8,846 nucleotides of DNA from an uncultured Atopobium sp. Lineage in GTDB: Bacteria; Actinomycetota; Coriobacteriia; Coriobacteriales; Atopobiaceae. Of this stretch, positions 2,414 through 5,155 are shown one piece after another (positions within the stretch are counted from its first letter, which is position 1; every line of letters begins with the position of its first letter). The notes below the pieces were generated by a model. That model did no database searches. It was not told the DNA's origin and saw only the letters and a list, made by a program, of their open reading frames with translations. The stretch lies in the NCBI GenBank assembly GCA_946647055.1, contig CAMPCT010000075.1, positions 1-8,846 on the forward strand, read 5' to 3'. The position numbers and the translations under genes were made by a program.

Positions 2414-3841
2414 GTGGCCGTGGGCGAGCTCGACATAGACCGGTTGCGCGCGGGGTACACGCCCACGCGCGCCGAGCTCGTGCGCATCGTCATCCTGATG
2501 AGCGTCCCCATGATCCTGTCCGAGATCAGCGTGCAGGTCATGAGCTACATCGACGCGGGCATGGTGGGAAGCCTGGGACCCGTCGCCACGGCGTCCGTGG
2601 GCCTCGTCAACACCACCGACTGGCTCATGTCGGGCATGTGCTTCTGCGTCTCCATGGGCTTCAACGTGCAGATCGCCCAGCTGGTGGGGGCAGGCCGCCT
2701 TGACGAGGCGCGCGGCGTCCTGCGCCAGTCGATGGTGGTCACCCTGCTGTTTGGTGCGGCCATGATGGCCATCGGGCTCTCCATCGCGGGGTCGCTTCCC
2801 CGATGGCTGGGTGGCGAGCCCGAGACCTGGCAGGACGCCAGCAACTACTTCCGCTGGTTCTCGCTGTCGATGCCCATGTGGGCGCTGTCGCGGGCCCTTG
2901 CGGGTGCCCTGCAGTGCAGCGGCGACATGAGGACGCCCAGCAACCTCACCATTGCCTCGTGCTTCCTCGACGTCGCCTTCAACGCGCTCCTCATCTTCCC
3001 GGGCCTCGACCTCGCGGTGGGAGGCGTCTCCGTCCATCTCCCGGGCGCCGGCATGGGCGTGCCCGGGGCGGCGCTGGGCACCGTGCTCGCGGAGTGCGTG
3101 GTGACCCTGGGCATGGCATGGGCCCTGCTCGTGCGCTCGCCGATCCTGGCGCTGCGGCTTGGCGGCAGCTGGCGGCTGCATGCCGACTGCCTTGTGTCTG
3201 CCACCAGAATCTGCGCGCCGATGTTCCTCGAGCGCATCGCGATGAACTTCGCCCTCGTGGTGCTCACGGTCTTCGTGACCCCGCTGGGCACGCTGGCGCT
3301 CGCCGCCCATTCGCTTGCCATCACAGCCGAGGGCATCTGCTACATGCCGGGCTTTGGCATCTCGGCTGCGTCGACCACGCTGGTGGGACAGGCAATCGGT
3401 GCCAACCGCAAGGACCTCGCCGTCCGCTTCTCCAACGCCTCGCTCATGCTGGGCTCGACGATGATGGGGCTCATGGGCGTCCTGCTCTTCGTGTTCGCCC
3501 CTCACATCATGTCGCTGCTCACGCCCGACCCCACCGTGGTGGGGCTCGGTGCCGCCGTCCTGCGCATCGAGGCCTTTGCTGAGCCGCTCTATGCCGTCTC
3601 CATCGTGGGCACGGGCATCTTCCGCGGGGCGGGCGACACGCTGGTTCCCAGCCTCATCGGCCTTGGCACGGTGTGGATCGTGCGCCTGCCGCTTGCATGG
3701 TTCCTCTCCCAGAGCATGGGCCTGGTGGGCATCTGGCTGGGCATGGCGACCGAGCTGTGCGTCCGTGGCCTCATCTTCCTGGTGCGCGCACGTCGCGGAA
3801 GGTGGCTCGAGACCAAGGCCATCACGATGGGGGAGGGCTAG
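2414..3841 (+). CDS. MATE family efflux transporter (full length)
   Basis: A complete 475-residue MATE-family (NorM/DinF-like) cation-coupled exporter with about twelve membrane segments. The start is taken as GTG at 2414, 2 bp after the PhzF stop; GAGG at 2403-2406, inside the end of the PhzF gene, sits 7 nt upstream, so translation is probably coupled. A GTG at 2420 is the alternative. Family signs are MSYIDAGMVGSLGPVATA (residues 43-60), the loop VGAGRLDEARGVLRQS, and two matching half-repeat blocks, ALQCSGDMRTPS (165-176) and GIFRGAGDTLVPS (401-413), reflecting the two-lobed MATE architecture. AAHSLAITAEGICYMPGFG (297-315) is also typical. There is a 15-20 residue polar N-terminal extension before the first helix. 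It may export the PhzF product or an unrelated compound; the sequence does not say which. Confidence 0.95.
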   Translation: MAVGELDIDRLRAGYTPTRAELVRIVILMSVPMILSEISVQVMSYIDAGMVGSLGPVATASVGLVNTTDWLMSGMCFCVSMGFNVQIAQLVGAGRLDEARGVLRQSMVVTLLFGAAMMAIGLSIAGSLPRWLGGEPETWQDASNYFRWFSLSMPMWALSRALAGALQCSGDMRTPSNLTIASCFLDVAFNALLIFPGLDLAVGGVSVHLPGAGMGVPGAALGTVLAECVVTLGMAWALLVRSPILALRLGGSWRLHADCLVSATRICAPMFLERIAMNFALVVLTVFVTPLGTLALAAHSLAITAEGICYMPGFGISAASTTLVGQAIGANRKDLAVRFSNASLMLGSTMMGLMGVLLFVFAPHIMSLLTPDPTVVGLGAAVLRIEAFAEPLYAVSIVGTGIFRGAGDTLVPSLIGLGTVWIVRLPLAWFLSQSMGLVGIWLGMATELCVRGLIFLVRARRGRWLETKAITMGEG

Positions 3842-3844
3842 CGC

Positions 3845-4300
3845 ATGTCTCGACGGACGGCCGGCTGGGGTCCTGCCTGGGCTTGGGTGCTGCTGGCGCT
3901 GTGGGTCTGCGTCATCTGGGGCCACTCGATGGTGCCCGCGCAGGGCTCCGATGCCGAGAGCCTGGCGGTGGTCGGTGTCGTCCGCAGGCTCTTCGAGCTC
4001 CTTGGCGTCACGGACGTCCATGTGATGAACCACGTCGTGCGCAAGGCGGGCCACTTCTGCGAATACCTCGTCCTGGGCCTGCTTGCGGTCAACGCGCTCC
4101 GGCCGCGGTGGGAGGGATGCCGGGAGCGACTCGTGCCCACGCTCGTCCTGGGAGCCTTCGTCCCCATCGTCGACGAGACGATCCAGGTCTTCGTGCCCGG
4201 CCGCGCCGGCATGCCCGCCGACGTCCTGCTCGACATGAGCGGCTTCGCCGTCGCCCTCGCCGCGCTAATAGCCACTAGGGGAGTATCCCCTAGTGGCTAA
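3845..4300 (+). CDS. VanZ-like family membrane protein
   Basis: A 151-residue membrane protein of the VanZ-like family (PF04892); the named member gives low-level teicoplanin resistance, but most members have no known role. GGGAGGG (3831-3837) lies 7 nt before the ATG, and the start is 3 bp after the MATE stop. Conserved blocks are the first helix AWAWVLLALWVCVIWGHS (residues 11-28), RKAGHFCEYLVLGLL (66-80), and DETIQVFVPGRAGMPADVL (110-128) with LDMSGFAVALAALI after it. Arg66-Lys67, His70, Glu73-Tyr74, Asp110-Glu111, Gln114, Arg120 and Asp126 are all present. The last ten codons (I142 to G151) and the stop lie inside a perfect 14-bp-stem hairpin (4269-4299), so the C-terminal tail ATRGVSPSG is encoded by the repeat rather than by family-conserved sequence. 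Third gene of the PhzF-MATE operon. Confidence 0.92.
   Translation: MSRRTAGWGPAWAWVLLALWVCVIWGHSMVPAQGSDAESLAVVGVVRRLFELLGVTDVHVMNHVVRKAGHFCEYLVLGLLAVNALRPRWEGCRERLVPTLVLGAFVPIVDETIQVFVPGRAGMPADVLLDMSGFAVALAALIATRGVSPSG
4269..4299. repeat. Hairpin 1 of a tandem pair: perfect 14-bp stem overlapping the VanZ gene end
   Basis: The left arm TAGCCACTAGGGGA (4269-4282) and right arm TCCCCTAGTGGCTA (4286-4299) are exact reverse complements around the 3-nt loop GTA. The arms contain the last VanZ codons and part of the stop. No T-tract follows on either strand, so it does not look like a standard intrinsic terminator, though it could still act as one or as a 3'-end protection structure between two convergent operons. 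The stretch is visibly more AT-rich than the flanking genes, which would fit an inserted repeat. Confidence 0.9.
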
Positions 4301-4335
4301 ATTGTCCATTAGGGGAGTATCCCTTAGTGGACAAT
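4301..4335 (+). repeat. Hairpin 2 of a tandem pair: 16-bp stem with two G-T pairs
   Basis: The left arm ATTGTCCATTAGGGGA (4301-4316) pairs with TCCCTTAGTGGACAAT (4320-4335) around the same GTA loop. Fourteen pairs are Watson-Crick and two (4309/4327 and 4312/4324) are G-T. In + strand RNA these become stable G-U pairs; in minus-strand RNA they would be A-C mismatches. I therefore assign it to the + strand, downstream of the VanZ gene. It exactly fills the gap between the VanZ stop (4300) and the cyclase stop (4339). Its centre is 34 bp from that of hairpin 1. No U-tract follows. Confidence 0.85.
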
Positions 4336-4338
4336 CGG

Positions 4339-5088
4339 TTATTCGAAAATGGCCCAGGCACGGACGGGCAGGCCCGTGGCACCCTCGATGTGCGGGTAGG
4401 CGATGAAGATGATGGCACCCGTCGCGGGGAGCTGGTCGAGGTTGTCCATCAGCTCGACCTGGAAGCGCTTGGACGAGAGGATGCGACGCTCGCAGGCGAG
4501 GTCCTCCTCCTTGACGGCCTCGGGAGAGGCGTCGGTGTCGAAGGTCTCATGGCCGATGGCCGCGACGTCGCGCTCGTCGATGAGGAAGTCGACTACGGGC
4601 AGGCTCCAGCCGGGGGCGTGCTCGCCGCCTTCCTCGTCAAAGTTGTTGAGGGCGTCGTTGCTGGGCCAGCGGTGGCCCCAACCGGTGCAGAGGGCCACGA
4701 AGGTGCCGGCGGGGATGGTGCCGTGCTCGGCCTCCCAGGCCGCGACGTCATCGAGGGTGATCGCGTACTCGGGGTTCTCGGCGACCTTGTCACGGATGTC
4801 GATGACCACGAGCGGCAGCACGTGGTCGGCGACGGAGAAGATCTCGGGGCCGGGGTCGCCGGCGGTGAAGTGGTTGGGGAAGTCGATGTGGGTGCCAAAC
4901 TGGCCGGGGAACTTGAAGGTGTGGATGCGGCAGGAGAGCATCTCCTCGTCGTAGTCGAAGACGGTCTTGCAGAGCTCGACCGAATCCTTGGGGATGCCGC
5001 TCCAGAAGGGGCTCTCGTTGTTGAGCGGGTGCGTGAGGTCGACCCAGTGATAGCCCTTGAGCTCCTCGAGCTTGTTCCAGAGACCCAT
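4339..5088 (-). CDS. Cyclase family protein (kynurenine formamidase/isatin hydrolase-like fold, PF04199)
   Basis: A 249-residue cytosolic metal-dependent hydrolase-type protein of the cyclase family. I place the start at ATG 5088, preceded by AGGAGG with a 4-nt spacer; the longer reading from 5154 adds a basic, family-foreign stretch. Family signs are YHWVDLTHPLNNESPFWSG (residues 13-31), QFGTHIDFPNHF (63-74), FVALCTGWGHRW (130-141) and VELMDNLDQLPATG (211-224). The usual metal motif is HxGTHxDxPxH; here Gln63 stands where the first His is expected, while His67, Asp69 and His73 are kept. The later His ligand region also seems altered (ACERRIL, with Glu200), with IGHETFDTD (178-186) just before it; Glu212 is present. 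It may belong to a distinct branch with altered metal binding. Substrate unknown. Second gene after DUF2804 on the minus strand, with its own likely promoter. Confidence 0.88.
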   Translation of the reverse strand: MGLWNKLEELKGYHWVDLTHPLNNESPFWSGIPKDSVELCKTVFDYDEEMLSCRIHTFKFPGQFGTHIDFPNHFTAGDPGPEIFSVADHVLPLVVIDIRDKVAENPEYAITLDDVAAWEAEHGTIPAGTFVALCTGWGHRWPSNDALNNFDEEGGEHAPGWSLPVVDFLIDERDVAAIGHETFDTDASPEAVKEEDLACERRILSSKRFQVELMDNLDQLPATGAIIFIAYPHIEGATGLPVRAWAIFE

Positions 5089-5124
5089 GTTTCCTCCTCG
5101 TGCGTCGTTGGCGGACCTGTGCCG

Positions 5125-5133
5125 TTTATACCA
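5125..5133 (-). promoter_or_regulatory. Candidate internal promoter for the cyclase gene (extended -10)
   Basis: On the minus strand, TGGTATAAA is an extended -10 (TG-n-TATAAA) in an otherwise very GC-rich region, placing a start point near 5118, about 30 nt before the cyclase ATG. No convincing -35 is present at 17 nt, which extended -10 promoters can tolerate. It suggests that the cyclase can be transcribed without DUF2804. Confidence 0.45.
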
Positions 5134-5135
5134 TG

Positions 5136-5155
5136 CGTGCCATCGCGGTGGCACG
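5136..5155 (-). other. Small inverted repeat between DUF2804 and cyclase genes
   Basis: On the minus strand, CGTGCCA and TGGCACG form a 7-bp stem with a 6-nt loop, starting 8 nt after the DUF2804 stop and immediately upstream of the extended -10. There is no T-tract, so termination is unlikely. Its position, just upstream of the -10, fits an operator or an mRNA-processing hairpin, but this is inference. Confidence 0.4.

What the first reader, a model, noticed from the sequence alone, without database searches (positions are those of the whole stretch)
4269..4335. Tandem matched hairpins with covarying stems between two convergent operons
Two hairpins with 34-bp period share the core TAGGGGAGTATCCC and GTA loop. 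Aligned on their centres, the outer stems differ at two adjacent pairs by compensating changes (A-T to G-C, and G-C to T-A), and two other differences turn G-C pairs into G-T. Every difference within the aligned 31 bp keeps RNA pairing. Selection for a structure, rather than for a sequence, is the simplest reading. There is no T-tract, so this is not a textbook terminator. It may be a dispersed repeat family (REP or MITE-like), a double 3'-end structure, or a protein-binding RNA.
Basis: partly seen in the sequence, partly recalled or inferred. Interest (0 to 1): 0.7.

Follow-up and report, generated by a model that had tools for sequence, protein, structure and literature searches.

The report
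REP-like hairpin repeats in Coriobacteriia
The two hairpins are copies of a short palindromic repeat scattered, sometimes hundreds of times, between genes of some Coriobacteriia; its tip is strongly conserved while its stem changes from copy to copy yet usually still pairs.

Summary
Observation confirmed: two strong hairpins (4269-4299, 4301-4335) with identical GGGGA-GTA-TCCC tips and four differences that all keep pairing. They belong to a dispersed family. The exact 12-nt core occurs in 55 of 140 same-family genomes, at 5 or more copies in 20, 425 in one (reversed control 0-2 per genome). Copies lie mostly between genes, without significant strand preference, often in inverted pairs (REPIN/BIME-like). 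Stems differ between copies yet pair more than shuffled arms in several genomes, not all. No shared GTAG/CGTC tag, no general T-tract, and no RAYT transposase closely linked to the exact core was found; in the highest-copy genome a RAYT is flanked by a sister repeat (GGGGAGTACCCC). Of 5 orthologous sites compared between two close relatives, one shows a 33-nt tandem duplication and one an in-place inversion of the core. So the window's pair is probably a local duplication of one dispersed unit, and its covariation may come from DNA template switching rather than selection on RNA. Best reading: an untagged REP-like palindromic repeat family, not found in the papers searched; movement and its enzyme are unproven. 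One copy supplies the stop codon of a vanZ-like gene.

The parts
4269..4299 (+). Hairpin copy 1 of the repeat: 14-bp perfect stem, GTA loop, core GGGGAGTATCCC at 4278-4289
   Evidence: (covariance model R1: 44.1 bits, E 2.7e-13; this copy was in the training set)
4301..4335 (+). Hairpin copy 2 of the repeat, same orientation, 34 nt on: 16 pairs with two G-T, core GGGGAGTATCCC at 4312-4323
   Evidence: (31.7 bits, E 5.7e-9; also in the training set)
3845..4300 (+). VanZ-like gene whose last 10 codons and stop (4268-4300) coincide with hairpin 1 (C-terminus IATRGVSPSG)
   Evidence: Pfam PF04892, E 2.5e-14; homologues P0001-P0003 (97, 96, 85% identity) share that C-terminus, P0004-P0011 do not
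4339..5154 (-). Convergent putative cyclase gene (PF04199) whose stop lies 3 nt beyond hairpin 2

Best explanation
The two hairpins are copies of an untagged REP-like palindromic DNA repeat that is dispersed between genes in a group of Coriobacteriia. SHOWN: the family exists, is mostly extragenic, has a strongly conserved 12-13 nt tip (GGGGA-GTA-TCCCC), has stems that vary from copy to copy and genome to genome but are complementary more often than shuffled arms in several genomes, and is often arranged as inverted pairs (REPIN-like); orthologous copies are inherited in place, and one tandem duplication and one core inversion were seen. INFERRED: copies spread as single-stranded hairpins handled by an HuH/Y1 (RAYT-like) enzyme acting in trans or since lost, which reads the tip rather than the stem; the stems are then kept complementary by template switching at the hairpin (a change in one arm is copied into the other), perhaps helped by selection. 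In the window one copy came to lie at the 3' end of a vanZ-like gene, was duplicated in tandem (34 nt), and the two copies then diverged by paired changes. As a side effect they can form stable 3'-end hairpins in both convergent transcripts.
For: Counts: exact GGGGAGTATCCC in 55 of 140 same-family genomes, 5 or more copies in 20 of 140: 425 in G086, 118 in G079, 83 in G084, 66 in G088, 33 each in G076 and G001; reversed control 0-2 per genome. Class-wide 44 of 396 sampled genomes hold the 13-mer; 13 have 4 or more, 11 of them in that family, the other two being G344 (6) and G361 (4). Tip: in 400 kb of G086 82 exact 13-mers, the commonest one-base variant 19. Placement in the same 400 kb: 2 of 83 copies in predicted coding, 30 in convergent and 3 in divergent gaps, although divergent gaps hold 27% and convergent 15% of gap bases; 5 of 157 coding in 13 other genomes. 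Lone copies in co-directional gaps: 30 with the genes, 22 against. Close pairs in G086 (one mismatch allowed, so sister repeats included): 55 '-+', 19 '+-', 9 '--', 4 '++'; 44 of the '-+' at 72 or 73 nt. Covariation: 37 copies, 89 cells changed on both sides against 38.8 +/- 4.8 in shuffles, 0 of 500 as high; 81.7% paired against 40-54% for slid partners. In G086 the outer arms of 54 '-+' pairs pair at 0.89-0.94 for positions 2-6 against 0.33-0.46 shuffled, with 29 different 5-mers. Five orthologous G009/G010 sites: one 33-nt tandem duplication, one core inversion, three with the same single core. The only Y1 gene found in G086 (L193) is flanked by inverted pairs of the sister repeat GGGGAGTACCCC.
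Against: No transposase is closely linked to the exact core: 0 of 22 Y1 loci and 1 of 30 (L197, a pair about 1.5 kb from the gene); 52 of 73 Y1 matches were looked at. G005 (29 copies) and G138 (10) have no Y1 match; their completeness is not told. No clean empty site was obtained, so movement is not shown. 24 of 83 exact copies have 7 or fewer paired positions by the simple count. Local stems do not exceed the shuffled maximum in G003, G009, G010, G079, G085 and G086, and only tie it in G076. In one search the number of pairs with any two-sided change (9) is no more than in shuffles (8.4). At the G001/G002 site one pair changed on both sides, but three pairs formed in G002 are broken in G001. 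In the 13 other genomes divergent gaps are not clearly avoided (15, against 38 convergent; no base shares computed). The gene caller is home-made.
Confidence: 0.72

Rival explanations
1. A conserved RNA element: an apical GGGGA-GUA-UCCCC hairpin bound by a protein or needed for 3'-end processing, with stems under selection for pairing only.
For: Strong covariation; copy 1 kept over 15% protein divergence in VanZ (P0003) and one orthologous copy kept between G001 and G002 at about 87% DNA identity with one two-sided change; many copies lie close behind stop codons.
Against: No significant strand bias: 49 same and 44 opposite, of which lone copies 30 and 22 (inverted pairs give one of each by design, and 30 to 22 would still allow a modest bias); copy number from 0 to 425 between genomes of one family; core inverted in place between G009 and G010; no Rfam match at gathering scores.
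Confidence: 0.12
2. Transcription terminators (bidirectional, without U-tract) multiplied by duplication.
For: Enriched in convergent gaps in G086; stable hairpins.
Against: T-runs after the stem in 24 of 238 copies on the same strand and 13 of 238 on the other; background over all DNA 8% in G086 and 2.6% in G001. Hairpin 1 begins inside the vanZ-like frame. A conserved tip is not needed for a terminator.
Confidence: 0.05
3. A double-stranded operator or nucleoid-protein site with the near-palindrome GGGGA-GTA-TCCCC.
For: The core is strongly conserved and near-palindromic; copies with poor stems still keep the core (24 of 83, but all were found by the core).
Against: A double-stranded site does not need 9 further flanking pairs that vary and still match; few copies in divergent promoter gaps of G086; spread of very similar 72-nt pairs in one genome looks like copying.
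Confidence: 0.06
4. Chance or a single local duplication confined to this locus.
For: The direct 34-nt pair itself looks like a tandem duplication, as at the orthologous site t.
Against: Hundreds of other copies; shuffles never fold as well.
Confidence: 0.02

Closest known systems
REP / REPIN (REP doublets forming hairpins; Bertels and Rainey 2011, PMC3116915, abstract and passages seen)
   Same: Short extragenic palindromes, high copy in some genomes, inverted doublets with fixed spacing (71 bp there, 72-73 nt in G086), compensatory changes reported as common there, tandem arrays too.
   Different: No RAYT found closely linked to the exact core; no GTAG foot; here the tip is conserved and the stem is free, and variable paired arms lie outside the cores.
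GTAG- and CGTC-tagged palindromic repeats (PMC3733652, abstract and passages seen)
   Same: CGTC families also lack a dedicated transposase; some dimers sit inside palindromes; units lie mostly behind genes; untagged REP-like families are acknowledged there.
   Different: No shared GTAG or CGTC tag; the word Actinobacteria does not occur in its main text.
RAYT-linked REPIN of G086 (GGGGAGTACCCC, this study)
   Same: Same genome, tip differs at one base, inverted pairs, 45 copies against 83 in the same 400 kb.
   Different: It flanks a Y1 transposase gene (L193); its pairs are mostly '+-' with spacing 34.
Template switching at inverted repeats (PMC8794818, abstract and introduction seen; PMC8604942, start of abstract in a listing)
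   Same: Paired changes, arm homogenisation and spacer inversion at inverted repeats, as seen at site a.
   Different: A mutational mechanism, not a repeat family; not demonstrated for these repeats by experiment.

Membership tests
REP / REPIN | Short palindrome, many extragenic copies in one genome | tested here: met
   425 copies in G086; 2 of 83 in predicted coding
REP / REPIN | Inverted doublets at fixed spacing | tested here: met
   G086: 55 '-+' pairs of 87 close pairs, 44 of them at 72 or 73 nt. Not met at this locus, where the pair is direct
REP (GTAG class) | Unpaired GTAG tag at the foot | tested here: not met
   GTAG within 30 nt left and right of the core in 0 and 2 of 81 (G086), 3 and 1 of 30 (G001), 4 and 2 of 24 (G079) copies (no shuffled control)
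REP (GTAG class) | Flanks a RAYT gene | tested here: not met
   0 of 22 and 1 of 30 Y1 loci, the latter about 1.5 kb off; only a variant core flanks the G086 RAYT; 21 of 73 Y1 matches not looked at
CGTC-tagged REP | CGTC tag | tested here: not met
   1 and 8 of 81 in G086, 2 and 3 of 30 in G001
Intrinsic terminator | T-tract behind the stem | tested here: not met
   none at the window's two copies; 24 and 13 of 238 copies on the two strands
Rfam RNA family | Reaches the gathering score of a known family | tested here: not met
   0 matches in the window
Mobile element (MITE/REPIN-like) | Demonstrated movement or clean empty site | tested here: inconclusive
   5 orthologous sites are filled in both genomes; the L065 region matched only repeats in G009

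The most novel reading that the evidence does not exclude
A class of palindromic repeats that is recognised only by its hairpin tip, so that stem sequence is free; each copy's stem is rewritten by template switching at the hairpin, which produces textbook 'covariation' and in-place loop inversions genome-wide with no RNA function. It would be a natural, replicated record of quasi-palindrome correction and a warning for covariance-based RNA discovery.
Probability: 0.3. Interest if true: 0.65.

Novelty: new variant of a known kind. Interest (0 to 1): 0.47.

Why it matters
If right, covariation, usually taken as the best sign of a functional RNA, arises here in a DNA repeat without clear strand preference. 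Hundreds of copies in a genome, plus orthologous copies in close relatives, would allow the rates of paired change, inversion and duplication at hairpins to be measured. It also adds Coriobacteriia to the bacteria with REPIN-like populations and asks which enzyme moves an untagged, tip-conserved palindrome.

Tried and rejected
Viral contigs with an exact 21-nt pattern: none. Phage records: none; plasmid records: one weak match (E 0.6) in a Legionella plasmid, taken as chance. Rfam: none. Hairpins behind the cyclase gene in 11 close relatives: none in the stretch printed (up to 220 nt; 159 and 210 nt in L003 and L004, which end there; three Slackia/Eggerthellaceae loci were printed too). Core near vanZ-like genes of relatives: 1 of 22 loci scanned (of 30 fetched), L274 of G086. 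An autonomous element carrying the core: 37 genes in 60 fetched stretches have cores (one mismatch allowed) on both sides; by the look of their first 60 residues, with no family search, they are ordinary genes except the G086 RAYT, which has the variant core. Idea that pairs sit in pre-existing GTGC...GCAC palindromes: 6 such hairpins without the exact core in 400 kb of G086, against 0-2 for eight other feet, and 2 of the 6 have tips close to the core; so too few to explain the pairs, but not excluded. Literature: the core string in 1 paper, on mouse neurexins (listing only, chance), its complement in none; Coriobacteriia, Atopobiaceae or Olsenella with REP terms gave nothing relevant in the listings.

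Full report
OBSERVATION. The two hairpins are real: 4269-4299 and 4301-4335. They fold far better than shuffles as RNA (z -9.5) and as DNA (z -8.8). The four differences between them within 14 pairs are two adjacent two-sided changes and two changes to G-T (by eye). They lie between a vanZ-like gene (+) and a cyclase gene (-) that converge. Hairpin 1 lies in the vanZ-like frame and coincides with its last codons and stop.

SOURCE. No whole genome is held for the window. The cyclase protein is 81-90% identical to loci in 11 genomes whose titles say Coriobacteriaceae, Coriobacteriales, Atopobiaceae or (one) Actinomycetes; eight are named RUG, which I recall to mean rumen uncultured genomes, and one is from water-deer ileum. 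So the window is very likely from such an organism. None of these 11 has the hairpins in the stretch printed behind the cyclase gene. Other genomes below bear handles without names; 'same family' is as given by the tool for G001 (the genome of L001).

DISPERSED FAMILY. The 14-nt core with up to one mismatch occurs in 10 of those 11 genomes, up to 33 times (G001), reversed control 0-1. The exact 12-nt core occurs in 55 of 140 genomes of the same family: 425 in G086, 118 in G079, 83 in G084, 66 in G088, 33 in G076, 33 in G001, 29 in G005; 20 of 140 have 5 or more, and many of the rest have one copy, which is about chance. Class-wide, 44 of 396 sampled genomes have the 13-mer; of 13 with 4 or more, 11 are in that family and two (G344 with 6, G361 with 4) are not in its list of 140, so the family of repeats reaches a little beyond it. 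A covariance model from 37 copies lists 51 matches in G001 and 45 in G005 (some places counted on both strands; only 150 candidates per genome scored) and none in G008. In G011 it lists 25, but those shown span about 70 nt and G011 has no exact core, so I do not count them. In the window only the two copies score clearly. In 400 kb of G086 there are 82 exact 13-mers; one-base variants are led by GGGGAATATCCCC (19) and a C at position 9 (8).

PLACEMENT. In those 400 kb (20 stretches, most chosen around listed copies, one around the Y1 gene) 2 of 83 copies lie in predicted coding sequence, 30 in convergent gaps, 43 in co-directional gaps, 3 in divergent gaps, and 5 lie at the edge of a stretch; divergent gaps hold 27% of gap bases and convergent 15%. 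In 13 other genomes 5 of 157 are coding; of those placed, 93 are in co-directional, 38 in convergent and 15 in divergent gaps, so avoidance of divergent gaps is clear only in G086. In co-directional gaps 49 copies point with the genes and 44 against. Because inverted pairs give one of each, I recounted lone copies: 30 with, 22 against, which is not significant but allows a modest bias. T-runs follow 24 of 238 copies on the same strand and 13 of 238 on the other.

ARCHITECTURE. Two forms occur. Form A is one core at the tip of its own stem: the window, G001, G005 (TGACTCAAAGGGGAGTATCCCTTCTGAGTCA), G009/G010. Form B is an inverted pair of cores whose outer and inner arms pair across, dominant in G086: 55 '-+' of 87 close pairs, 44 at spacing 72 or 73. 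These counts allow one mismatch and therefore include some sister repeats GGGGAGTACCCC. Both forms are seen in G084. Of 83 exact copies, 56 have 11 or more and 24 have 7 or fewer paired positions.

COVARIATION. On 37 form-A copies (of 83 listed; I left out one coding copy and the 45 copies of G003, G005, G009 and G010, whose species-specific stems would dominate) the 14-pair stem is 81.7% paired against 68.6% in shuffles and 40-54% with slid partners; 89 cells are changed on both sides against 38.8. One of the five measures, the number of pairs with any two-sided change (9), does not exceed shuffles (8.4). The copies were found by the core alone, so pairs outside it were not selected. Per genome, pairing beyond the core exceeds the highest of 300 shuffles in G001 (184 against 152, of 330), G005 (142, 139) and G084 (165, 150), ties it in G076, and stays within shuffles in G003, G009, G010, G079, G085 and, for the local stem, G086. 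In G086 it is the outer arms across the pair that covary: 54 pairs (55 less one cut off), 0.89-0.94 paired at positions 2-6 against 0.33-0.46, 29 different 5-mers; at position 13 and beyond pairing is at background. Two pairs there carry matching changes even in the core, GGGGAGCATCCC with GGGATGCTCCCC.

ORTHOLOGOUS SITES. G009 and G010 are close enough to compare. Of 5 sites, three have the same single core (b, c and the L069/L302 site, the last with a different left flank). At site t G009 has two direct copies 33 nt apart where G010 has one. At site a the core reads GGGGAGTATCCCC in G009 and GGGGATACTCCCC, plus one G, in G010, with the right flank nearly identical and an indel close to the left. 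Site t is a tandem duplication (or a loss of one unit) much like the window's pair. Site a is an inversion of the hairpin tip in place, which template switching between hairpin arms is said to cause (PMC8604942, start of abstract; PMC8794818, abstract and introduction). Between G001 and G002 one site is kept at about 87% identity, with an identical core; one stem pair changed on both sides (T-A to G-C), and three pairs formed in G002 are mismatched in G001 (by eye). VanZ homologues P0001-P0003 (97, 96, 85%) keep the hairpin-coded C-terminus; P0004-P0007 (67-79%) and the more distant ones aligned lack it, so copy 1 is probably an old, retained insertion.

WHAT MOVES IT. Y1 transposase (PF01797) genes were found in 10 of 11 and 23 of 26 genomes. 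Of 73 matches I read the surroundings of 52 (two of these loci overlap). Many have their own, different flanking repeats. The exact core was near none of 22 and near one of 30 (L197, about 1.5 kb away); the single G086 gene (L193) is flanked by inverted pairs of GGGGAGTACCCC, which has 45 copies against 83 in the same 400 kb. G005 and G138 have copies and no Y1 match. So a RAYT-like enzyme is a plausible but unproven mover; the sister repeat is the best hint.

COMPARISON. The family works like REP/REPIN elements but fails two tests of the GTAG class (tag, RAYT flank) and the tag test of the CGTC class. PMC3733652 reports CGTC repeats without a transposase, REP dimers inside palindromes, and untagged REP-like families (abstract and passages); PMC3116915 reports 71-bp inverted doublets and common compensatory changes (abstract and passages). 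I found no paper that describes this core or REP-like repeats in Coriobacteriia in the searches made; the library lacks most subscription journals.

VERDICT. An untagged REP-like family with a conserved tip and free, mostly paired stems. The tandem pair in the window is most likely one dispersed unit duplicated locally. The covariation is real, but its cause (template switching, selection, or both) is open.

Noticed in passing
L193 (G086) 1043-1111, 1892-1957, 3150-3214: Y1 transposase gene (match 1501-1827) with inverted pairs of ACCTCTCAAGGGGGAGTACCCCTCTTGATTGG on both sides, a sister repeat one base from the studied core.
   Followed up: partly
L088 (G003) 1044-1090 and 1922-1983; L096 (G011) 1304-1373 and 2230-2297: Very long perfect palindromes (stems 22-33 bp) flank Y1 transposase genes on both sides, unrelated to the studied core.
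   Followed up: no
L207, L213, L218 (G086), pairs at 8898, 1720 and 1505: Some sister-repeat pairs have complementary flanks that extend beyond the repeat (by eye).
   Followed up: no
window 3845-4300: The repeat coincides with the last codons and the stop of a vanZ-like gene, a REP-like insert that became coding.
   Followed up: yes
L302 (G010) beside the core, against L069 (G009): The right flank of an identical copy matches closely while the left flank differs for some 200 nt, as if a stretch had been inserted or replaced at the repeat.
   Followed up: partly
L061 (G002) and L078 (G001): A copy kept between two co-directional genes, just ahead of the downstream gene's start, in two species.
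   Followed up: partly
G344 and G361: Six and four copies of the 13-mer in genomes of the class that are not in the family list of 140.
   Followed up: no
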